Source: Zychaea mexicana (taxonomy: Eukaryota > Mucoromycota > Mucoromycetes > Mucorales > Lichtheimiaceae). From it: DNA of 64,000 bases. Below, one piece after another: positions 1 to 11,030 of the stretch. The stretch covers positions 248,001-312,000 of the forward strand of contig NW_026516680.1 of NCBI RefSeq assembly GCF_025766255.1. Reading direction: 5' to 3'. The position numbers and the translations under genes are program-made. Position 1 is the first letter of the stretch, and every line of letters begins with the position of its first letter. The notes beneath the pieces were generated by a model. It searched no databases. It saw nothing but the letters and a program-made list of their open reading frames with translations, and was not told the origin of the DNA.

Positions 1-780
1 AATCGTTTGTGCAGGTAGAGGACGATGTTGTATTACGCACGCAAGTCTGACGTTAAAATGGTGCAAGATGGTGCATCAAGTATATACAGAGAAAATGAGA
101 AAGAAGCAGTAATTCTGGATGATAATATCTCCACTAAAGCTATACCTCAAGCACAACCAGTAACCTTTTCCTTCCCTCGTTCACTTACCCAGCGTTTTTT
201 AAGCAGTAACGGCGGTCTACTCCTTATCAATCTTGAGCACATGCTTTTTTCAAGAAAACAGTTACCTTCATTTCGTTTTTCAATAAATCCGTGGATTGTG
301 CCGTTTTGTTTTCTTTGTTTTTATTCATCGTGAAGAGAGTAGGAGCCATTTACAAGTGTGCGTCGAAGCTGTTGATTTGCCGTGGCAAATGGTAATGAGA
401 AAAAAAAAGGATCTTTAGTTGTTGTTTTTTTCCTCTATACTGCTGCTAACAAACCCCACACTTTCCACCTACCTCAGCCACCAGCCTCCAGTTTGTTTCA
501 AACTCAATCCGGGTAAAATGAATGGAGGGGAAACGCTCAGGCCCTGTTCCCACAGCAGCAAAATAGGCTTATGCATACAGTAGTGAGTCTCTGATGCACC
601 CTTGCCATTTCCTGTACATTAGCCTACAAGCTTCTTGTCACGAGTGAAACAGCCATACTACTATATTGTGACATTGGCTTTGCACTGCTTAACTTCTATT
701 ATGTCTTGACTTGAATTGAAAATCTTAAGTACTCAAATATTCTGCTCTGCTACACTTAATATATTATCTACTTCAACTTT
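1..780. other. Intergenic, no supported gene
   Basis: A 102-codon open frame at 25-333 has no recognisable motif and unremarkable composition, so I do not call it a gene. The rest is AT-rich with no clear signal, although the edge of the 22-bp tandem array begins just downstream. Confidence 0.5.
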
Positions 781-782
781 TA

Positions 783-1225
783 TTATGTCTTAGTTGACTA
801 AAACAATGTCCAGGTTGACTGTTATTATGTTCAGGTTGTCTATTATTCATGTTTAGATTGATTATTATTCTTGTCCAGAACGATTTTCATTCATGTACAG
901 ATTGATTTTTATTTTGTCCACATTGATTTTACTCATGTCCAGATCGATTTATATTCATGTCCAGGTCAAGTAATATTCATGTCTAGATCGTTTTATATTC
1001 ATGTCCAGATCGATCTTTATTCATGTCCAGGTCAATTTATATTCATGTCCAGCTCGATTTTCATTCATGGCTAGATCGATTTTCATTCATGTCTAGCTTG
1101 ATTTTCATTCATGTCCAGCTTGATTTTCATTCATGTCCAGATCAATTATTATTCATGTCTAGATTAACTTTTATTCCTGTCCACTCAGATTAACATTCAT
1201 GTCCACTCTGCCTAAAATTAAATCC
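783..1225. repeat. 22-bp tandem repeat array, about 18-20 degenerate copies
   Basis: The consensus unit is close to ATTCATGTCCAGATCGATTT plus two bases. The central copies (about 925-1170) align end to end at exactly 22 bp with mostly single-base differences, and copies at both edges are more diverged. The period is not a multiple of three and the copies touch without spacers. This fits a minisatellite rather than a coding repeat or CRISPR. It sits directly beside the left breakpoint of the mitochondrial-type insert. Confidence 0.9.
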
Positions 1226-1255
1226 CTTCTGCCTAAATAAAAGTTCAAATGTCTA

Positions 1256-2895
1256 CTAGGAGGTGAAAAATCCTGTAGGTTCATCAGCTTTTCTCCATAA
1301 TCCTGAATTTAAATCTAAGATTTCTGAAAAATGTTGATCAACCCATTCTAATCTTTTGGTAATAGATAATTTATTTAATCCAAAGGCATTTGCTCCATAA
1401 ACCTTTAAAGAATTTAATCCATTTTCAGATAATACATTACCTTTTTTGAATAACAATAATGATCTTGCTAATTTACTACCTTGGAAATTTAATTCACCCC
1501 CTTGGCAATAAACTCTTCCTCTCTAGTCTAAAAAGAAAGTAAAATAAAATTATTCAACATCTCTATAAAGTTTAGCAATAGTTAAAATTGAATTATTATA
1601 TAAGAATTTACTATTATGAGATGTAATTTCAAATTCTTTTTCTTTATTATTCTTTTTAATAATCTCACTCATTTCATCTGTCTCCTAATGTAATGTTCTA
1701 ATAATTAAATCATCATTAAGTAGCAGATTCATTAGAAAATCTAATACTTTAAGATTAATATTGAAACCAATAGATGACATATAATTAACCATTTTAATTG
1801 TCATTTTATTTATAAATTTAATATTTGATTCAGTAAATCTTTTACTTCTAATTAAAGGATTAAAATTCTTAATATTATTAGTAATATATCCACCATATGT
1901 CTTAAATTCTTTGTTATCATTTCATTCCCAATAAATAGGTGGATATACTATAGGTAATTCATGACCATTAATCATACCTAAATATTTAATATAGTTTTTA
2001 TTGGTAACTAGGAATAATTTCTCTATGAGTTTTTTTACTTTTAACATCATATCATTCTAGGATATTAAAAAGATCACTTTTCATATCCAAATAACTATTA
2101 ACAGTACCACTAATATTAATAAAATTCTCTTCATTCATTGTAAAATTCTTCAAATATAAATTAAAAGTTATAATATCCTGAGATTTATCATCAACTTCTT
2201 TAATATATTTTTGATATAAATATTCTTTATATAAAGTTTTTCCTAATCTATATATGAAATAAAGTTATAACTAATTGTTCTTTATAATCTTCATATTTCA
2301 TAATAAAGGGGATTAACAAACTTAAAATCAAGAACAGCATCAAGGATTTATCTATTTCTTTAAACATAAAAAGATATTTTTTGTTTCTAATATATTTTTC
2401 ATTTTCAAAATACATTTTTAAGTCATCTTCTAATAACTTATAGTTATTTAAAAATTTTCTAAACCTAGGATTTATATTTCAGAAATCCTTAGACTTACTC
2501 ATTTTTTCTAGTTTTTTCAACCATAAAGAATGTAATTTTTCTTCTAAATTTAATTGTTTTTCTTTAAGAGATAAAGTATCGTTTGATAAAATTTCTTTAA
2601 TAGTAATATAACCACTAGAATTTTCATTTGTAAGAGAAAAATCTTTTATACCATTAAAAGTTGAATTTAAAATATTATTTTTTGAAGGGTTTTTATTTAT
2701 ACATACCACTGAAGGTAATAAAGCTGAAAGTAAATTATCCGGAGTATTAATCCAGATATTACTAGTAATTAAACCATCAGGTGTTTTAATCCTGATGTAA
2801 CTTGAAATAAGCTCTGTAAAAGAGTTTAAATCGCAGGTATTCGAAGGGAAAATAGGGCAATCACTAAAAATATAGAATAAGTTTGTAAACATCAT
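1256..2895 (-). pseudogene. Broken phage-type (T7-like) RNA polymerase, mitochondrial plasmid type
   Basis: The family is the single-subunit DNA-directed RNA polymerase that transcribes mitochondrial genomes and linear plasmids. Reading the minus strand across frames from 2895 gives a coding-like N-terminal region, then a block with VYPPIYWEW (the final W encoded by TGA), then FYFTFFLD, a stop, and RGRVYC. That corresponds to the family motif with aromatic-rich FYFP..LD(F/W)RGR(V/A)Y. It continues to SKLARSLLLF, ANAFGLNKL and LWRKADEPTGF, which is the region ahead of the catalytic palm. The C-terminal half with the later catalytic motifs is missing at the 1256 breakpoint. In-frame stops lie at 1523-1525, 1550-1552 and 1685-1687, and there are at least two frame changes between 1950 and 2280. 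No function is expected. Confidence 0.8.
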
Positions 2896-2945
2896 ATTTT
2901 TAAAGTAAGTAAGTAATTAGATAGCATCTAATTTTTAGTAATGAT
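2838..2945. repeat. Gene-start repeat, copy A (pairs with 4196-4300)
   Basis: On the minus strand this covers the first ATG and roughly 20 codons of the polymerase frame plus its leader. Shared blocks with copy B include GATAGCATC, TTTGTAAACAT and CGAAGGG..AATAGGGC(G/A)ATC. Both copies encode a related start, beginning MFTN and MFTK, followed by SD(C/R)PI.PS once a 1-nt slip in copy B is allowed for. Confidence 0.7.
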
Positions 2946-3307
2946 TTATTTAGTTTCAGATTAATTATCTCTACTTACAGTACCGCCACGAGAAGGCATA
3001 AATCAAGGTACCGGGGGAGAATTCTATAAAATAATGATAATAAATATTGATATCATGGGAGATTATTTATTATTATTATAAAATAATAATAATAATCTTT
3101 TATATGAATCATCAACCCAGAATGATTCGTTTAAATAATAGCAAATAACTAAAATTCCAATATGACATAATAACATAATTATTAATAATACAAAATTATT
3201 CCAATCTCTTAATGAAATAACAAGGCAAACTAATTTATGTAATAAAGGTCTATTCTTAATAAATTCTCATTCTTCAATTTTAATTAGTTTACTTAACATA
3301 CCTATAA
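2946..3307. other. AT-rich spacer with a small GC-rich cluster
   Basis: Between the two decayed genes the sequence is mostly A/T runs. Around 2979-3020 there is a GC-rich island, CCGCCACGAGAAGG followed by GGTACCGGGGGAG. It resembles the short GC clusters common between genes in fungal mitochondrial DNA. No open frame is supported. Confidence 0.5.
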
Positions 3308-4255
3308 TTAAAAGAAACAACCAAGAATTCCAATAAATGTAAATAGACAAACACATAAAATTAAAATAGGAGTAGGATTTCCATCACTACCTCTAAAATA
3401 TTCATTTAATAAATTAAATACATCTTGTGGATTTTCAATTAATTTTGAAATGAATTCTACAAAATTATTACTATTTTCATTTGGAGAATTAATTTTGAAG
3501 TTTCCATCTGGTGGAGGACTACCAGATCTTTCAATAGAGTGATAATACATTCTTTCACACATTTCTCTCATTTTTTTTCTTTCTTCATAGTTATGATTCA
3601 TCATTTCACCTAATCCATAAGTAGCAAAACCACCAATAGTACCAACAACACCTAAAAACAATCCATTTCTAGGATTTGTTTTTGCAATTTTAACTGCAGC
3701 AGTTATTGTTGTTCCAGAAAGAATTCCCGCAGCAACTCCAGGAGAAGTAATTGGTTTATCATTATTAGAATTACTATTTGATGGATGATTATTTGACCCT
3801 GCACCTCCATCTCCAAAATTAACATTAAAAGTATTTTTTGATGAAGGATTTGTATTAGATGAATTGGGGCAGAACTTATATAAATTAATAAACCTAGTAA
3901 TACTAAACCTAAAGAGCCTGTAAAAATTTAGAGAGATTATCATTTAAGAAGTGAATAAATTCTATAAAATAAAGATGAATAGAATCAACTAGAATATTAG
4001 GAATTAAAAATACAGATGCAAATCTAAAATGATTTTTATCTGTAGAATAGTAATACTTATGTTTAATAAACTTAATAATGATAGAATATTATTCTGTAAT
4101 AAAGAATAATAAGTTTGTAATAATCTATTACATCCATAAATAAGTATTTTAAACCAATAACTAGAAATAACCCAAACTAAGTTTAAAGTTAATTACAGGA
4201 TACGAAGGGGGAATAGGGCGATCGCTAAAATTTTAAAAGAATTTTTGTAAACATT
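3308..4255 (-). pseudogene. Frameshifted membrane protein gene, mitochondrial-plasmid type
   Basis: The longest intact part (3308-3943, 211 codons) has an Asn/Ser/Gly-rich segment (FNVNFGDGGAGSNNHPSN), two hydrophobic segments (around GVAAGILSGTTITAAV and GLFLGVVGTIGGFATYGL), an acidic/charged stretch and a C-terminal hydrophobic segment (PTPILILCVCLFTFIGILG). I cannot name a family. It resembles accessory membrane ORFs of fungal mitochondrial genomes and plasmids. Upstream, coding-like hydrophobic sequence continues in other frames to a start at about 4255 inside copy B of the gene-start repeat. Near 3880-3920 the alternative frame reads LGLVLLGLLIYIS, a better membrane segment than the annotated frame. 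At least two frameshifts are therefore likely. Confidence 0.55.
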
Positions 4256-4300
4256 TTTTTTTAATAAATTAATAAAATTAGATAGCATCAATTAAATAAC
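4196..4300. repeat. Gene-start repeat, copy B (pairs with 2838-2945)
   Basis: Shares ordered blocks with copy A, including the GAAGGGGGAATAGGGCGATC core and the downstream TTTGTAAACAT and AGATAGCATC boxes. It lies at the 5' end of the broken membrane-protein gene. Confidence 0.7.
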
Positions 4301-4357
4301 ACTATTTTTAAAAATAAAGACATTTAGTTTCTCATTAAATAATGATACTTAAAAGGA

Positions 4358-4888
4358 ATGCTTTCTGGCTACCAATATTTCGAATTAGACAAAACGACAG
4401 CACTCTTACTCAACAAAGATTGGACGCATGAGCTATATGTCAAGTTTGCCTGTGCCCAAGGCTTGGCAGGTTCAATCCTGATGAATGTCAACAATGGTGA
4501 AGCCAATCTTGTGAATACGGTAGAGGTTTATGGTCGAACCAAATCAGTTGACATCCACCGAGAACTGTCTACTTTGGCTACCTCCTCAATCCTCACAACC
4601 ACTCCAATGTACCCAAACCTCTGGCCATGCATCCAAAGCACAAGGGATGGCTCCAAGCTGGTAATTGGCACCCAATCATGCGATTGTCTCATTATGTTAA
4701 TCGTTCGCCTCGATCGGAACGAAGAGCCCAAAGTGGGACCTTTGGCTTTTTACTTTGCTGCATCACCAAAACATACTAAGATATTTATCGACCAAGACAG
4801 CTGGACAAAAGCCAAGGATATAGAGTCAAATGAATCAACACAGTCAATCGAGCCCTTCAATTTGGTTGGCCAAGCAAGACAGCTTTGA
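4358..4888 (+). CDS. Hypothetical protein, 176 codons, unrecognised
   Basis: The frame starts at an ATG 13 bp beyond the right edge of the mitochondrial-type DNA and has balanced, nuclear-like composition. It reads as soluble and mixed-charge, with no membrane segment (examples: LDKTTALLLNKDWTHELYVK near the N-terminus, LAFYFAASPKHTKIFIDQ near residues 128-145). I recognise no domain. The abrupt start beside foreign DNA suggests the true 5' end may be missing. A second open frame follows 57 bp downstream and could be another exon or the same protein after a break. Function unknown. Confidence 0.4.
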   Translation: MLSGYQYFELDKTTALLLNKDWTHELYVKFACAQGLAGSILMNVNNGEANLVNTVEVYGRTKSVDIHRELSTLATSSILTTTPMYPNLWPCIQSTRDGSKLVIGTQSCDCLIMLIVRLDRNEEPKVGPLAFYFAASPKHTKIFIDQDSWTKAKDIESNESTQSIEPFNLVGQARQL

Positions 4889-4945
4889 TCACATTTTCAC
4901 CATCCAAGCACTTATTTCCTTTGTCGTGCTTCAAGTCATCTCGCT

Positions 4946-5239
4946 TTGCCACATTACTGCCAACTGTATACAGTGTTTACCTACTGTAATCATGAAGGTG
5001 TGAATAAATCAATAGACAACGAAAACTCGTCAGCGATTGCTTCAAGACTATTCCAGCGAATTGCATATACCGTAATCAAGTCATCTTCCGAAGCACGTAT
5101 CAAAAAGGATTTGGCCGTTTCCTTGCATAGTCAATGCAACAATGATACCAGAATCAAGCTTCTTTTCGCAGACCTGATCAACCTGTGGCGTCCTACTATT
5201 AGTTGTCTAACCAATTATAATCTACTAGCTGTAATATAG
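4946..5239 (+). CDS. Hypothetical protein or gene fragment, 97 codons
   Basis: Coding-like sequence with helical character (SSAIASRLFQRIAYTVIKSS, EARIKKDLAVSLHSQ) and no recognisable domain. The frame stays open upstream of the first ATG, almost to the end of the preceding ORF. The two may therefore be pieces of one gene separated by a frame change or short intron around 4890-4945. It stops 34 bp before the left inverted repeat of the Rep/DDE element, so the element may have inserted at its 3' end. Confidence 0.35.
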   Translation: MPHYCQLYTVFTYCNHEGVNKSIDNENSSAIASRLFQRIAYTVIKSSSEARIKKDLAVSLHSQCNNDTRIKLLFADLINLWRPTISCLTNYNLLAVI

Positions 5240-5273
5240 ATAATCAAATTGCTATGATCGGTATAACCATCAG

Positions 5274-5326
5274 TGGCCGAATTAATTATTGATTTACAAT
5301 AAAAATAATAAAAATTGAATTTTTTT
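5274..5326 (+). repeat. Left terminal inverted repeat region
   Basis: The outer 14 bp (5274-5287) match the right end 12/14 in inverted orientation. An inner 20-nt block (5307-5326, AATAAAAATTG plus AATTTTTTT) matches 9067-9086 perfectly. A TCAG just outside (5270-5273) also appears, inverted and offset by 2 nt, beyond the right end. The AT-rich tract sits immediately upstream of the transposase start and could double as a promoter. Confidence 0.65.
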
Positions 5327-5394
5327 ATTTATATTGGTAGCCTCCCACGAGAAAAAAAAGAGCGATTGTTTAAAGTACATAACAACAAATAAAA

Positions 5395-6872
5395 ATGAAC
5401 ACAACACAACACACTGAACAACTCGATATCGAAATTAAAAATTTAATTAATAATAAATGGACTTTTCTTGATAAATCTTGGCCTGAAATGCAACATAGAT
5501 TTAATCATAGAACAGCTATTAAAGATATGAAGAATAATACAATAAATGATATAAAGGATGTATTACTTAATAGATTTGGATTTATACCTGTATTTTATTT
5601 CTTACAGTTTTATATGGAAATATTGAATATCTAGGGCCATACTGCGAGATTGAAAAAGGACTTACATTATTATATCATATGGTATCAGGTGTATCAGGAA
5701 AGGATATGCATACTGTTATGCTATATGCAACATTTTATGATTTATATAAGCAGTTCTGGATTACTAACTATAATGAATTGAATAAAAAGGTAAAATAAGA
5801 TCTAGATAGTATGTTCTCATCACCACGTATTCGCATTCTATCAGCAATAATAAACAATCCAGATGGTTTTAAGAATGTTACACTATTTATTGATGGACAT
5901 GATAGTAAAATAAAGTATTATAAACCAAATGAGTCACATTCACAGTTATATTCATATAAATTAAAAGGGCCAGCTGTACGTACACAAGTTATACAGGATA
6001 TGAATGAAATAATTACACATGTTTCAGTATCTGAAAAATGTGCTATCGGAAATGATGGTACTATGTTTATTAATATGAAACTATATAAAAAAATAAGTGA
6101 GGCAGATTGTTTAGGAATGGATGGTGGATATAACTTATTTATACAAAAGTTTAAAGATAATGCGACAGATGCTGGATATAGTTTTTATGATCGTAATTTT
6201 TTACATCCCACAAGAAAAGAACCAGGACAAAAGTTAACAATCAATGAGACATACTTTAATAACAAGTTTGGATCATTTCGTTCAGCAATAGAAGCACAGT
6301 TCTCTATGTTAGGCTCTAAATTTGAACGATTTAATAATAATCATGCAGCATTGCAAATAACCGATATAAGATATTATAATATTTAGTTTTGTGTTGCTTG
6401 TATTCTTACTAATATATGGCGATTTGTAAATAAGTATAATATAGAGGTACAACTACATCATAAATTATGGTATGGAAAAGATTTTGAATTCCCAAGTAAG
6501 AAAAACAAACTTGACTTAGTATTTTCAAATGAGCAAAAAGTAAATACTGAATATAATGAAATGGTTGACATGCAGCAGAAATTTCTACAGCTTAACATTA
6601 ATCAATCGATAGATATGGCTATAGATAGTGAGGACGAAACTGAAAATAATACATCTAAACGCAAGAGAAAAAATCAAAGAGAACAGAGAAATATAGAACA
6701 TAGTAATTCATATGAAATTGAGAAGATTGTAGGACATGTGTATACTGATAATAAGTACATATTTGAGGTTAAGTGGGTTGGATATAGTGTAAAAGATAAT
6801 AGTTGGTTAACAGTTGATAAGTTTAATTCCCGGGAAATGCTACATGAATATATGGCCACACATGGTATTTAG
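5395..6872 (+). pseudogene. DDE transposase (Harbinger/DDE_Tnp_4-like) with C-terminal chromodomain, broken
   Basis: The family is a cut-and-paste transposase of the DDE superfamily. The acid residues are visible as VTLFIDGHDSKI (first D), CLGMDGGYN (second D) and FRSAIEAQFSMLGSKFERF (E, in the R..IE..F..L...F context of Harbinger-like enzymes). The frame closes with a Lys/Arg-rich patch (SKRKRKNQREQR, a likely nuclear signal) and a chromodomain: YEIEKIVGH, then FEVKWVGYSVKDNSW, with cage-type Y, W and Y residues. Chromodomains read methylated histone tails and could steer integration to heterochromatin. Breaks are a frame change between about 5580 and 5610, a TAA at 5796-5798 and a TAG at 6384-6386. 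Both stops fall where Gln would fit and are one C-to-T change away. It ends 2 bp from the convergent Rep stop. Confidence 0.8.
6561..6872 (+). other. Chromodomain-coding 3' part of the transposase gene
   Basis: An intact 103-codon frame from ATG to stop. It contains an acidic stretch (DSEDETENN), a basic bipartite-like cluster and the complete chromodomain of about 50 residues (from YEIEKIVGH to the last helix). It is in the same frame as the DDE core and separated from it by one TAG (6384-6386). If the TAG is a real end in this copy, this segment could still be made as a stand-alone chromodomain protein. Confidence 0.7.
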
Positions 6873-6874
6873 CT

Positions 6875-8986
6875 CTAAATTAATCTCTTACTTATTTGCT
6901 TATTAAAAAATTTCATATTGAAACTGACCGCATCAACCTTTCGTTTACTTGCCCAATTATATTTATGTTTTATGCATTCATTAGTTATACTTGTACTTAT
7001 ATTAGTATCTGTTGATTTATTTTTGACGTCGGTTTCTTTTGTTATATCTATATCATCTATTATAGCCTGTTTTATATCCTTATGCTTTTTAATAGATTCT
7101 TTTGGCTGTATTTCTTCTACTATTTGCTTGTTTCTCCGTTTATTTTTAATGTGTCTTTTTTCCTTTTTACGTTTTGGTATATTATTTGGTATGTTGCAGT
7201 CACTGCTTTTCTCTGATTCAGATGTACTTACATCTATGTATTTATGTTTCTCTATATCTTCTGGTGGGTTTTCCCAATCAGTAGTATCATTTACAACATC
7301 ATCACATTTTATATCATTAAACACATCTTCCCAATGCCTACAATCTACTGATGGTGGTACCTTTACAGTTGACCATCCTCTATTATTTTGTTGAGGCGGT
7401 TTATATTGTTTATTGTTCTGTGTATTATTACTATTATGTTTTTCTTCTTGTTCCTTCATATATTCTTCTGTATCAGCTAATTCTTGTAGTTCCTCTACTG
7501 TTTTATCCATCGGTGTATATTTTTTAATATCATCCTGACCACTATTATGTGCATAACAGATAAATGTATGCTGATCTTGGTATTCGTTTTTGAATTCACC
7601 TTTGTATAAGTCCTCATACATATCCATGTTTTCATAATACATGAATTTATTTTCATAATCCTTCACCTTCATTGTGTATGAATTCCATATTATATGACCT
7701 TTACGGTTCTTATCAACATAGATAATATATAAACGATTGAGCGTTGGCTCTAACTCATATACTGATTTGTTTTTGTATAACATGTGCAGCATATAGTTAC
7801 TATTCAGTATTATTGGCATATTTTTCTTTTTAGTTATTGACTTTGTGAATTTGCTATTAAGTTTTAACCGTGTTCCTTCTAACATTTGGTTTAAAAATGT
7901 TAATTTGAAACCAGAACCTGTTTCTTCATTATACATAAAATCATAATCATCATCCTTATAATCTGACCAATCATTTTCTTTATTCATTAGATATGCTCGA
8001 TGACCACCTTGTTCTAATACATCAATGTTATATGTCTTACCTACATTTGATGGACCTACAATCCAGTATTGTGGTATCTTATTTTTGCCACTAAACATTG
8101 TTTCAATACCAAACATAGACCACATATGTAATTTATTTCCAAGGTTATTTTCCATATCTGCATCATGAAAGTAAGAATTTAAATTTGATTTTACAGTATC
8201 ATATTTCCATAGTAATTCTGGATATATTTCGGTAGCCTTCCATATATTAAGCTGCTTAGTAATTAATTGATATCTAAGTAACTGTTGGTGCATTTTTCTG
8301 GTTTTAATTTCATAATTTGGATCTATATTATAACAAATATAATCTTTTCCTTTCATACAATAGCTAATAGACTTTTGTGGATTACCACCTGGTTTAATAT
8401 TTGGAGTAACACCATCAATAGTAAAGAGTTTACGTGCTGTTTTTGTGTCGAACCGCTCATCCAATTGTATCTATATGTGTACATGTTTCTCATTGGTTTC
8501 TGGTGCAATTTCATCACATGCAATTGCCTTTTCAATTCGATAACCAATACATTCATGTTTTATAAACCATTCCATGATTTGCTCTTTTGTTAAATGGAAG
8601 TCCTTACAAATGTATATGAACAGCCCTTTAGTGTTTTGGAATCGGAATTCTTTGCCGCCCTGCGAGGAATCTGCACCAGAGGTGTTACCCTCTAACATTG
8701 CATCAGAAAATTGAGGATTTGAGGATTTGAGGAATCTCACATATTCTCGAATTCTTCCAATTATTTTATTGTGTGCATTATCTTTAGTTTTTTTATCTAC
8801 TTTAGCCTGTGTAAGGTCTTTTTCGAGTTCTGACCTCAGTTGTGTGACAAGAGGTTCATACTCAATATGCTGATGGTTTTCAGCAAGGTGTTTTGCTCTT
8901 TCAATTAAGAGCGTCAATGTAACTCCTAAAATAGGAACAAACTCAGCCATAATGGCTAAGAATGCGAGAAGGTTGAGTTGGTTCAT
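6875..8986 (-). pseudogene. rep: CRESS-DNA-type Rep: HUH endonuclease plus SF3 helicase, one in-frame stop
   Basis: Rep proteins of small circular ssDNA viruses and plasmids nick an origin to start rolling-circle replication and unwind it with a superfamily 3 helicase. From the ATG at 8986 the frame has a hydrophobic N-terminus (MNQLNLLAFLAIMAEF), a Lys/Glu-rich region, then the HUH fold: KGLFIYICKDFHLTKEQ (motif I position), KHVHI (motif II) and SYCMKGKDY (motif III with catalytic Tyr and Lys). The helicase has Walker A VGPSNVGKT, an acidic Walker B (DDDYDFMYNEE) and motif C (MPIILNSN). The C-terminal third is disordered and Lys-rich. A TAG at 8471-8473, directly after motif II, splits the frame; beyond it 529 codons are open. 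About 700 codons in all, long for this family, with roughly 100 unfamiliar residues ahead of the HUH domain. This copy is probably inactive unless the stop is read through. Confidence 0.85.
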
Positions 8987-9066
8987 GTCGATTGTTGAAG
9001 TAATAAAAATAAAAAATATAACAAATATATTTTGCTTTATATTCTGTGGTGTTATTTTTATATTAA

Positions 9067-9160
9067 AAAAAAATTCAATTTTTATTTTTTTCAAAAATTT
9101 AAATGTATGCATGCCAAGACATTCGTGCATGAATTATTTCAATAAAAATTAATTTGGCTA
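9067..9160 (-). repeat. Right terminal inverted repeat region
   Basis: The outer 14 bp (9147-9160) and the inner 20-nt block (9067-9086) are inverted copies of the left end. The spacing between the two blocks is 41 bp longer than on the left, so the ends are asymmetric. The inner block lies 81 bp ahead of the Rep ATG. Confidence 0.65.
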
Positions 9161-9224
9161 TCCTGACATATCTTAGCTAATAAGTCATCTAGGGTTACTA
9201 GATTGCATTAAAATCATCATAACC

Positions 9225-9374
9225 ATGGCCGGTCCCCTGTTTGGCGACCGCACTGAAGTACCCATCATCGGTAACGTGGAATTAAACAACCATATCCTGA
9301 AGAACATGGCTACGATAATGTCATCGGACATCTTCAAGGCTAATGAAGCGGTGGCCGTCAATATCCAAAAATGA
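9225..9374 (+). CDS. Possible short exon or small ORF, 49 codons
   Basis: An ATG in a good context (ACCATGGCC) opens 49 codons with ordinary amino-acid use (begins MAGPLFGDRTEVPIIGNVEL). It starts 65 bp outside the right end of the Rep/DDE element. I recognise no family. It may be the first exon of the decayed spliced gene that follows (9600-11030). Low confidence because of its length. Confidence 0.3.
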   Translation: MAGPLFGDRTEVPIIGNVELNNHILKNMATIMSSDIFKANEAVAVNIQK

Positions 9375-9599
9375 TTGCATGTATATTAATCCATACTACC
9401 TGATGATTGCTTTTCATTAACATGATTCATACCCACCATTCTCATCTTTTCAAAAATAATTATTCTGATTAAAACACGTCCCCCCTCATAATTCCATCAT
9501 GTTTCTTATACTCACCATGTTTTATATAGTATCCATCTAGCCACTAGTAGTTGTTTTATTAGCAGGGCATATCATCACAAATAAAAAGTTGTATCCCTC

Positions 9600-11030
9600 T
9601 TTTTTATAGTTGCGTTGGCTTGCAAGATGCTACACTCTACCGCAAGTCCAAGAAACGACACGTCTTGGGCAATGGCATATGCATTTATTTCAAAGATAGG
9701 CGAGACATGATCTACCTATGGCTTTAGATCAAATTGTTCAATGCCAGTTGTAGCTAGATAATGACCAGCATGATGGGCTTTCTGTTATTAACGCTGGACA
9801 CACCTTCTGTTACGTGCTCCATAGGAAGTCCATTCGAACAAATTTCCTATTTGGAAGTGGAGTATCTGCAAAGCCCCTAAGTTACTCAAGTGATATGGTT
9901 GGACGCGTCTTTATTTCGTGTGATTACAGCAGCAAGTAGTAGCAGCAACAACGAGTATAATATTTTTCTGCCTTGTCCTTTTTTACCATTTTCTATATCT
10001 TATTTGCACTGACGAGTATTATAGTCAAATTCTAGAACGACAGCCACACCACCCATGTCCCCCAATGAATACACAACTGCAATCGAAACTGGCGACCATG
10101 CTACATCGAGAGGGTAAATAATACTTTTTAAATGTTTGAAGTCAAAAGATTTTAGACTACTAGGTAGCTGCGTCTTGGATCAATATCTACATTTTATGGA
10201 TGATTCAGACCGCCTAAACCTGAGTTAAGCAACGATAAATGGTAAGATAGTCTTTACTTCTGTTCCTTAAATTTTTCATGTCTTACTGTAAATCATAATA
10301 TATACTCACATTAAACACTGCGAGTGGTATATAGATCATCAGGTACGAGGTCAATATCACACCGTTCCTGTCACGTAAGTCATGTCCTTTTTTGGTGCTT
10401 AATTTGACACTCTACATGTGTTCTCACACGACCTCAAACCCAATCTAGATCATCCTCTCTACAAGAAACCACTGCTCAGACAATTCAAAGTGCTCGCGAG
10501 TATGTTTACTATAGAAGATATCGGTTTTGCGCAATTTGTTTTAACGATAATTTATACTATATAGTATCTCGGATGCGCAAGAAACTGTTGCTCCCTTAAA
10601 CAAAACCGTTTGCAAGTAAGTATATAATTTCGGTTAGGAAAAAACAACAACAAGACAACTCCCCTAACCAGGGTTTCTCATTGATCTTCCATATAATGCA
10701 GTGATGCTCTTAGATCGAACCAACGATGCCGTCAAACAAGACAAGCAACGTAAGTTACATTTTCATAGAATGTATATTCAAGGCATAAGAAGAGTAATGT
10801 ATGTACATTTCATTTACACTGTTTATCATAGATCTGTACTAGACGGACAGCATCGAGAAGGAGGAGCAACAGAAGGATTACGAGCACCAAGCAATCGAAG
10901 AGTAGAACGTAGACGTGGAGGTAAAAACGACGTCAGAACGTCATAGTAGCAGAAAAAAAATTCCTCTACGATGTTCACAAGAGAGCAGTGAAGATGACAC
11001 GCCTTTGAAAAAGAAGAGCCGCATGTATTA
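9600..11030 (+). pseudogene. Decayed multi-exon gene, unrecognised
   Basis: From about 10055 onward there are well-formed donors (GTAAAT 10117, GTAAGA, GTAAGT 10374, GTATGT, GTAAGT, GTAAGT) and acceptors that delimit a run of exons of about 30-60 bp and a longer last exon. Splicing keeps phase in two different frames, and each frame meets TAA or TAG codons. The last exon reads well as acidic-then-basic sequence ending SSEDDTPLKKKSRMY at about 11030, but only across one or two TAG codons. Earlier, 9611-9960 holds coding-like fragments such as NGICIYFKDRRDMIYLW and INAGHTFCYVLHRKS in different frames. I conclude this is a once-spliced gene now broken. Function unknown. Confidence 0.4.

What the first reader, a model, noticed from the sequence alone, without database searches (positions are those of the whole stretch)
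5274..9160. A mobile element pairing a CRESS-virus-type Rep with a DDE transposase and a chromodomain
The window shows, between matching inverted ends, a convergent pair of genes: an HUH endonuclease/SF3 helicase Rep (HVHI, YCMKGKDY, GPSNVGKT, ILNSN motifs) and a DDE transposase with all three acidic residues plus a chromodomain. Known Rep elements replicate by rolling circle and known DDE elements by cut and paste; a single unit carrying both would have two independent mobility enzymes, with a chromatin reader for targeting. The layout, two convergent genes reading inward from AT-rich ends, resembles a geminivirus- or circovirus-like genome in which the capsid gene is replaced by a transposase. 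I know of no description of this combination.
Basis: partly seen in the sequence, partly recalled or inferred. Interest (0 to 1): 0.9.

Follow-up and report, generated by a model that had tools for sequence, protein, structure and literature searches.

The report
Fungal transposon carrying virus-type replication gene
A mould genome carries dozens of copies of a jumping gene that pairs an ordinary cut-and-paste enzyme with a virus-type DNA-replication enzyme, both apparently kept by selection, so it may move by cutting and multiply by replication.

Summary
The element is window 5187-9237 (4,051 bp, a little larger than reported), flanked by a TGT duplication. In its own 50.3-Mb genome the two genes sit side by side, convergent, in 41 of 63 Rep clusters. 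Twenty of 53 paired-end copies are 4,031-4,075 bp long. Of 35 copies with both flanks read, 22 have exact 3-bp target duplications; seven paralogous empty sites were aligned. Chance nesting is excluded. The Rep is a CRESS-type HUH/SF3 protein (best solved match a Redondovirus Rep); its core is under purifying selection (dN/dS about 0.10 between diverged copies), apparently also in a lineage that lost the transposase gene. The transposase is a DDE_Tnp_4 protein with a chromodomain, from a large Mucorales family. Some backbone copies carry other second genes in the same slot, so this looks like a PIF/Harbinger-like transposon that acquired a Rep, not a virus that acquired a transposase. The window copy is broken in both genes. 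Rolling-circle amplification is inferred, not shown. A decayed truffle element with Rep and transposase ORFs (Liu et al. 2011) is a precedent, so I call this a new variant of a known kind.

The parts
5187..9237 (.). whole element, 4,051 bp
   Evidence: Similarity to other genomic copies stops at these positions; 20 of 53 paired-end copies are 4,031-4,075 bp
5184..5186 (.). target duplication TGT, left copy
9238..9240 (.). target duplication TGT, right copy
5187..5193 (+). left terminus GGCGTCC; inverted match of 5 of 7 bases to the right terminus
9231..9237 (-). right terminus, reads GGGGACC on the minus strand
5302..5326 (+). AT-rich subterminal inverted repeat, left arm
   Evidence: 96% complementary to 9067-9091
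9067..9091 (-). AT-rich subterminal inverted repeat, right arm
5395..6872 (+). transposase-chromodomain gene, broken here (frame break within about 5598-5664; stops at 5796 and 6384)
   Evidence: uninterrupted 494-aa form in other copies
5811..6386 (+). open part with the DDE catalytic core (DDE_Tnp_4)
   Evidence: E 8.3e-10
6561..6872 (+). open part with the chromodomain
   Evidence: PF00385 E 8.7e-08; the full-length protein matches HP1-type chromodomains in the PDB, best E 1.3e-04
6875..8986 (-). Rep gene (HUH endonuclease and SF3 helicase, long C-terminal tail), in-frame stop at 8471-8473 in this copy
   Evidence: 703-aa uninterrupted form in another copy
8471..9130 (-). open part with the N-terminal helical region, HUH motif I and HVHI
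6875..8464 (-). open part with motif III (YCMK), Walker A/B, motif C and the tail
9188..9202 (.). TCTAGGGTTACTAGA palindrome near the right end; weak candidate for a Rep site (loosely like the CRESS nonanucleotide, which is recalled)
   Evidence: Mostly kept, with variants, in the Rep-type right ends printed; different in the right ends of C115B, C112 and the short coiled-coil-gene copies; absent from the 151-bp copy; the 9100-9237 fold is no better than shuffles

Best explanation
A DNA transposon of the PIF/Harbinger (PHIS) type, most likely from a Mucorales mould, in which the second, convergent gene is a captured and maintained CRESS-type Rep. SHOWN by sequence: the two genes move as one unit with fixed ends and 3-bp target duplications; both proteins keep their catalytic motifs in many copies; the Rep core is under purifying selection. 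INFERRED: the chromo-DDE protein does the cutting and pasting and may steer insertion by reading chromatin; Rep nicks and unwinds the element (excised circle or replicating copy) so that extra copies are made by rolling-circle-type synthesis, and the transposase pastes them in. Likelihood by step: one co-mobile transposon 0.97; Rep contributes to propagation 0.85; it does so by replicative amplification 0.45-0.5. The confidence below is for the whole statement including the mechanism.
For: Co-mobility: 41 of 63 Rep clusters and 41 of 59 close transposase hits are paired, convergent; 22 of 35 flank pairs have exact 3-bp duplications, about 0.6 expected under an assumed 62% A+T; spanning empty sites for 7 of 15 insertions searched; all 7 aligned, six with the very target triplet once and the seventh, more diverged, with AGA for AAA; among them are three two-gene copies of 4.05-4.08 kb and one Rep-only copy. 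Rep identity: PDB profile match to Vientovirus Rep 1.2e-08 and TYLCV Rep 1e-06; Foldseek top PDB hit Vientovirus Rep 6.4e-12; 531 BFVD matches at E<=0.001, of which 50 were listed and the named ones are all Rep, replication or replicase proteins. Selection: 24 fetched Rep copies (of 63 clusters; two pairs are duplicated loci), core median dN/dS 0.10 at dS 0.4-1, 0.19 at 0.1-0.2, 1.17 below 0.03, the usual pattern of a transposon gene selected while moving and decaying after. H168 24/24, H170 21/24, Y209 23/24, K212 24/24, Walker A K 24/24, E354/E355 24/24, N395 24/24. In three Rep-only copies that share one deletion of the transposase gene with a decayed chromodomain remnant, nonsynonymous changes are still too few in the three (non-independent) comparisons (10 of 30, 9 of 26, 11 of 20; P 3e-08, 5e-07, 0.009), a hint that Rep acts preferentially on the copy that encodes it.
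Against: No origin was identified: the only NANTATTAC in the element lies inside the Rep gene (7424), and the right-end stretch with the palindrome does not fold better than shuffles. No circular form was looked for in reads. A 151-bp copy with both ends and a duplication lacks both genes and the palindrome; it may have moved so, or been deleted after insertion. Copies with other second genes also amplified, so Rep is not needed by every relative. The helicase part of the model is low confidence (mean pLDDT 49.6 overall, HUH part about 80). H170 is lost in 3 of 24 and Y209 in 1 of 24 copies, and one relative (P0002) lacks the second HUH histidine. 19 of 24 Rep copies carry at least one stop. 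Rep alleles recombine between copies (C140 and C174 differ by 1 of 203 sites in the remnant but dS 0.41 in Rep), so lineage-wise selection estimates are approximate.
Confidence: 0.5

Rival explanations
1. Rep is an accessory subunit of ordinary cut-and-paste transposition. It binds (and perhaps nicks or melts) the ends, taking the place of the Myb/SANT DNA-binding protein usual in PIF/Harbinger elements, with no rolling-circle replication.
For: Same slot and orientation as the second gene reported for Harbinger elements; other second genes without any Rep occupy the slot in C115B, C112 and C212; target duplications and empty sites look purely cut-and-paste.
Against: HUH, catalytic tyrosine and Walker residues are nearly always conserved in the copies, not only a binding surface, and hold in the four relatives of 50-60% core identity aligned.
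Confidence: 0.35
2. Rep is a passenger: captured cargo without a role in mobility, kept for some other reason (for example host control).
For: Transposase relatives without Rep are numerous (63 of 64 distant ones tested).
Against: Purifying selection across many copies is hard to explain for cargo that does nothing for the element.
Confidence: 0.1
3. The unit descends from a CRESS virus or plasmid that acquired a DDE integrase.
For: Two convergent genes in about 4 kb, virus-type Rep.
Against: The transposase family is larger and mostly Rep-free (1 of 64 distant members tested has one nearby), slot genes differ, no capsid family matched the open frames tested, and no relative was confirmed among 2.9 million viral contigs by pattern scans, which reach only fairly close relatives.
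Confidence: 0.04
4. Chance nesting of two unrelated insertions.
For: Rep-only and transposase-only copies exist: 22 of 63 Rep clusters and 18 of 59 close transposase hits are unpaired (some are at contig ends or fragments).
Against: They share the same ends; the four Rep-only copies C68, C140, C174 and C57b carry a remnant of the chromodomain gene, so they derive by deletion; the pair itself occurs 41 times, three two-gene copies with empty sites.
Confidence: 0.01

Closest known systems
Geminivirus-like transposon of the truffle Tuber melanosporum (Liu et al. 2011, PMC3198968; section 8 read)
   Same: Repeated fungal element with a Rep-like ORF and transposase ORFs between inverted repeats
   Different: There: one interrupted Rep ORF, two transposase ORFs (one interrupted, one truncated), 37-bp inverted repeats, no obvious target duplications, transposase type not stated in that section. 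Here: 3-bp duplications, empty sites, short imperfect ends, chromodomain, uninterrupted genes in some copies, selection measured
PIF/Harbinger and the wider PHIS superfamily (Han et al. 2015, PMC4482050; passages)
   Same: DDE_Tnp_4-type transposase, 3-bp target duplications, two genes, about 4.1 kb
   Different: Rep instead of a Myb/SANT protein, chromodomain on the transposase, target triplets fit none of the published group consensuses
Cressdnaviricota Reps, nearest solved one Redondovirus (Vientovirus) Rep (PMC12981564; abstract and outline)
   Same: HUH endonuclease followed by SF3 helicase, with the catalytic motifs
   Different: About 700 aa with a helical N-terminal extension and a long charged tail; no capsid gene recognised; chromosomal repeat
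Fungal transposons with captured accessory enzymes, such as TET/JBP-bearing Harbinger, hAT and Helitron lineages (PMC12730594; passages)
   Same: Fungal DNA transposons that acquired an enzyme gene beside the transposase
   Different: There a DNA-modifying enzyme, here a replication enzyme
Terminon retroelements of rotifers with Rep-like ORFs (mentioned in PMC5718144; passages)
   Same: A transposable element that carries a Rep-like ORF in what the review calls a transient association
   Different: Retroelements, not a DDE transposon
Helitrons (recalled)
   Same: HUH endonuclease with a helicase on a eukaryotic transposon
   Different: Helitrons use their HUH protein as transposase, have a different helicase type and make no target duplications; here a DDE enzyme and duplications are present

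Membership tests
PHIS / PIF-Harbinger superfamily | DDE_Tnp_4-type transposase | tested here: met
   5.3e-11 and 7.5e-12 on two uninterrupted copies, above Pfam cut-off, profile positions 2-158 of 158. No transposase tree was made
PHIS / PIF-Harbinger superfamily | 3-bp target duplication | tested here: met
   22 of 35; aligned empty sites
PHIS / PIF-Harbinger superfamily | Group-specific target triplet (TWA, ANT, CWG or TNA, from the passages) | tested here: not met
   Triplets are mixed (AAT, ATG, TAG, CTT, CAA, GAG and others); only the middle base leans to A/T, 20 of 22 listed. So group membership is not claimed
PHIS / PIF-Harbinger superfamily | Second gene encodes a Myb/SANT protein | tested here: not met
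   Second gene is Rep; no Myb/SANT hit in Rep or in the three other second-gene proteins tested
PHIS / PIF-Harbinger superfamily | Two tail-to-tail genes, about 4 kb | tested here: met
CRESS-type Rep | HUH motifs I-III with catalytic tyrosine | tested here: met
   lost in a few copies
CRESS-type Rep | SF3 helicase motifs | tested here: met
   Walker A, B and motif C conserved in the alignment and in genomic copies; model of this part has low confidence
CRESS-type Rep | Sequence or fold match to known Reps | tested here: met
   PDB E 1.2e-08, Foldseek 6.4e-12; Pfam Gemini_AL1 only below its cut-off for the own protein (0.0016) but above it for the relative P0107 (2.3e-08)
CRESS virus | Nonanucleotide stem-loop origin | tested here: inconclusive
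   In the element NANTATTAC occurs only inside the Rep gene; palindrome near the right end, not a significant fold
CRESS virus | Capsid gene | tested here: not met
   The two genes fill the element; no capsid family hit on the open frames tested
Helitron | Insertion without target duplication, no DDE enzyme | tested here: not met
Truffle geminivirus-like transposon | Homologous Rep and transposase | not tested
   Its sequence was not fetched

The most novel reading that the evidence does not exclude
A transposon with two mobility engines: a chromatin-reading DDE enzyme that cuts and pastes, and a virus-type Rep that amplifies the excised element by rolling-circle replication, Rep acting mainly on its own copy. 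It would be a living intermediate between ssDNA replicons and cut-and-paste transposons, with a slot for exchangeable second genes. The seven head-to-tail junctions with a common 15-bp linker could be traces of circular multimers.
Probability: 0.42. Interest if true: 0.93.

Novelty: new variant of a known kind. Interest (0 to 1): 0.8.

Why it matters
Cut-and-paste DNA transposons must gain copies indirectly, and ssDNA replicons rarely have their own way into chromosomes (both recalled). An element selected to keep both a DDE transposase and a CRESS Rep would join the two and makes the old question of how ssDNA viruses, plasmids and transposons interconvert directly testable in a fungus. It would also show that the second gene of Harbinger-type elements is an exchangeable module.

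Tried and rejected
Chance nesting: rejected. Virus with captured integrase: disfavoured. Viral relatives in IMG/VR: four scans, none confirmed (41 pattern matches, 0 confirmed; 0, transposase: 0; no match). Origin search: nothing significant; the left end folds better than shuffles (z -2.07, 8 of 200 shuffles as good), largely through an AT hairpin at the subterminal repeat.

Claim dropped: selection in the Rep-only lineage had looked strongest in comparisons with the C140 copy (dN/dS about 0.07). One search showed C140 and C174 nearly identical outside Rep, so a Rep allele was exchanged by recombination; I use only the three other Rep-only copies.

Linkage in another organism: the relatives P0002 (Rep, 55%) and P0034 (transposase, 56%) both list a longest contig of 4,459 bases. 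This may be one contig with both genes, but I could not fetch it, and by my rough estimate an equal length among so many proteins could be chance; not used as evidence.

Head-to-tail junctions: 7 loci with right end, 15-bp linker and left end, in both orders of element type. Outer flanks match at C115 (TGA) and not at C303 or, where the left end lies 11 kb away, C51; the others could not be tested or were truncated. Composite transposition, recombination between arrays and circular intermediates all remain open.

Literature: ten searches of open PMC papers; nine aimed at this element or its background, one at Redondovirus Reps. In them Liu 2011 was the only account of a Rep plus transposase element that I noticed; most papers were seen as listings only, and passages or sections were opened for seven. 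Repbase and closed journals were not searched.

Limits: the genome searches scored part of their candidates (82 of 132 for Rep, 150 of 449 for the transposase, 40 of 63 and 40 of 136 for the flanks), so counts are lower bounds and absences are soft.
Full report
WHAT IS THERE. The window lies in contig C79 of an unnamed 50.3-Mb, 305-contig genome. The plus strand from 5395 encodes a transposase with a chromodomain; the minus strand from 8986 encodes a Rep; the genes face each other with two bases between their stop codons (6872 and 6875). In this copy both are broken. Uninterrupted forms stand elsewhere in the genome: a 494-aa transposase-chromodomain protein and Reps of 696-703 aa; 5 of 24 Rep copies compared have no stop in the aligned part.

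TRUE ENDS. Aligning the window to 50 loci shows similarity stopping at 5186/5187 on the left and 9237-9239 on the right in most copies that reach that far, with unrelated flanks beyond. The ends read GGCGTCCTACTATTAG... and ...CATGGCCGGTCCCC. The genome holds 93 left-end and 62 right-end matches with up to 3 mismatches, against 0 for reversed controls. Pairing each left end with the nearest right end in the same orientation gives 53 pairs; 20 span 4,031-4,075 bp. One 151-bp copy keeps only the two end regions (C106).

IT MOVES AS ONE UNIT. Of 35 pairs whose two flanks I held, 22 have an exact 3-bp repeat (20 of 33 if the duplicated loci C13/C141 and C294/C294 are counted once), 13 do not; about 0.6 were expected under an assumed 62% A+T. 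Two further copies read later show AAG (C135) and, placing the end at GACTTCC, GAG (C140). I joined the flanks of 19 insertions and searched 15: 7 have paralogous empty sites spanning the junction (C13, C19, C46, C68, C112, C201, C234); for 8, the window copy among them, none was seen among the candidates scored. All 7 were fetched and aligned: six show the target triplet once, exactly where the element sits; the seventh (C112) is a more diverged site with AGA for AAA. C13, C19 and C46 are two-gene copies of 4.05-4.08 kb; C68 is Rep-only. Copies without a duplication are probably recombinants (inference); for example the second C79 copy shares the window copy's left flank but not its right flank.

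THE PAIR IS THE RULE. The 89 Rep matches (82 of 132 candidates scored) form 63 clusters; 41 have a close transposase convergent within 3.5 kb, 21 of them 490-501 bases from the catalytic core. Of 59 close transposase matches (78-100% identity), 41 have a Rep. Of the 91 distant ones listed (150 of 449 candidates scored), I tested 64 (49-65%): 1 has a Rep nearby. All 89 Rep matches are 68% or more identical to the query, so no other Rep family turned up in this genome at that sensitivity.

OTHER SECOND GENES. In C115B and C112 the same transposase backbone carries a different convergent gene, a coiled-coil-like protein; in C212 it carries a small gene with a KRGK..C..KKI.TNLN motif. Pfam gives no match above cut-off for the three such proteins tested. 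The coiled-coil protein shares a short linker (SSIPHISEAMLDGNTSS..TSQGG against SSNPQFSDAMLEGNTSGADSSQGG) with Rep, and in C115B and C112 also the C-terminal tail, a sign of recombination. Four Rep-only copies (C68, C140, C174, C57b) share one deletion; they keep a chromodomain remnant with a common in-frame stop and frame breaks, so they derive from the two-gene form; C115A is a separate Rep-only copy with another deletion. The second gene therefore looks like an exchangeable module, and Rep is one occupant.

WHAT THE REP IS. Pfam matches are below cut-off for the own protein (Gemini_AL1 0.0016) but clear for the unnamed relative P0107 (2.3e-08). Solved-structure profiles give Vientovirus FB Rep 1.2e-08 and TYLCV Rep 1e-06. 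An AlphaFold2 model from 11 sequences is confident only in the HUH domain (about 80; whole 49.6); Foldseek puts Vientovirus Rep first (6.4e-12), followed by geminivirus Reps, parvovirus Rep68 and circovirus Reps. Relatives keep motif III and the SF3 motifs where they are complete; the second HUH histidine is lost in one (P0002, HYY).

SELECTION. For 24 Rep copies (those fetched and long enough, of 63 clusters), core dN/dS falls from 1.17 (dS below 0.03, 11 pairs) through 0.66, 0.41, 0.19 and 0.16 to 0.10 (dS 0.4-1, 113 pairs). The transposase (38 rows) gives 0.83 for the closest pairs and 0.14-0.15 between the main group and the C212 and C63 copies; its classes between dS 0.03 and 0.4 stay at 0.59-0.83, and some of those rows are short or mixed alignments, so the transposase series is less clean and gives weaker evidence. 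Rep-only copies C68, C174 and C57b, compared pairwise, show 9 of 26, 10 of 30 and 11 of 20 changes nonsynonymous (P 5e-07, 3e-08, 0.009), while their transposase remnant has decayed. If Rep served any copy equally, a copy that lost the transposase gene would not need to keep Rep intact; the data hint at preferential action on the encoding copy. These copies now carry stops too (2-4 each), and recombination between copies is common, so this remains a hint.

HOW IT PROBABLY WORKS. Insertion by the DDE enzyme is supported by target duplications and empty sites. The chromodomain resembles HP1-type readers and could steer insertion; no targeting test was made. Rep keeps nearly everywhere the residues needed for nicking, tyrosine linkage and ATP-driven unwinding, so a catalytic role is more likely than mere binding. 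The simplest use is to copy the excised or replicating element. Seven head-to-tail junctions sharing a 15-bp linker would fit circular multimers but also have recombinational explanations. The origin was not found.

NOVELTY. Liu et al. 2011 (section 8 read) reported a truffle repeat with a Rep ORF and two broken transposase ORFs, so the pairing as such has a precedent. New here, as far as my searches show, are the transposase type with chromodomain, co-mobility with target duplications and empty sites, selection on Rep, the Rep-only lineage and the exchangeable slot. Nine paper searches on the element or its background found no account of it; Repbase was not searched.

Noticed in passing
window 1-9239 and own-genome C79:237490-246734: A 9.2-kb inverted duplication (99.4% identical); the arms run on about 118 bp beyond the window start and are separated by about 1.03 kb. 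On the window side it ends within 2 bases of the element's right end. Could be a genuine fold-back or an assembly effect.
   Followed up: partly
C115:38319, C51:10313, C53:15914, C79:237469, C174:4106, C194:10362, C303:10349: Seven head-to-tail junctions: right end, 15-bp linker like TGAATATTTAAAATT, left end, with different element types on either side in both orders.
   Followed up: partly
C201:162964-164118, C51 about 9170-10320, C53:15938-17121: Short elements (about 1.2 kb) of the same family that carry only the coiled-coil-like gene; the C201 copy has a TTA duplication and an aligned empty site.
   Followed up: partly
C140 and C174 Rep-only copies: Nearly identical left flank and remnant (1 of 203 differences) but very different Rep alleles (dS 0.41): gene conversion or allele exchange between copies.
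   Followed up: partly
C292:187604-190257: Mosaic element: transposase 97% but Rep only 84% identical to the window copy.
   Followed up: no
window 1001-4000: Very AT-rich stretch (22-26% GC) to the left of the element; most of the rest of the window is near 40% GC or above.
   Followed up: no
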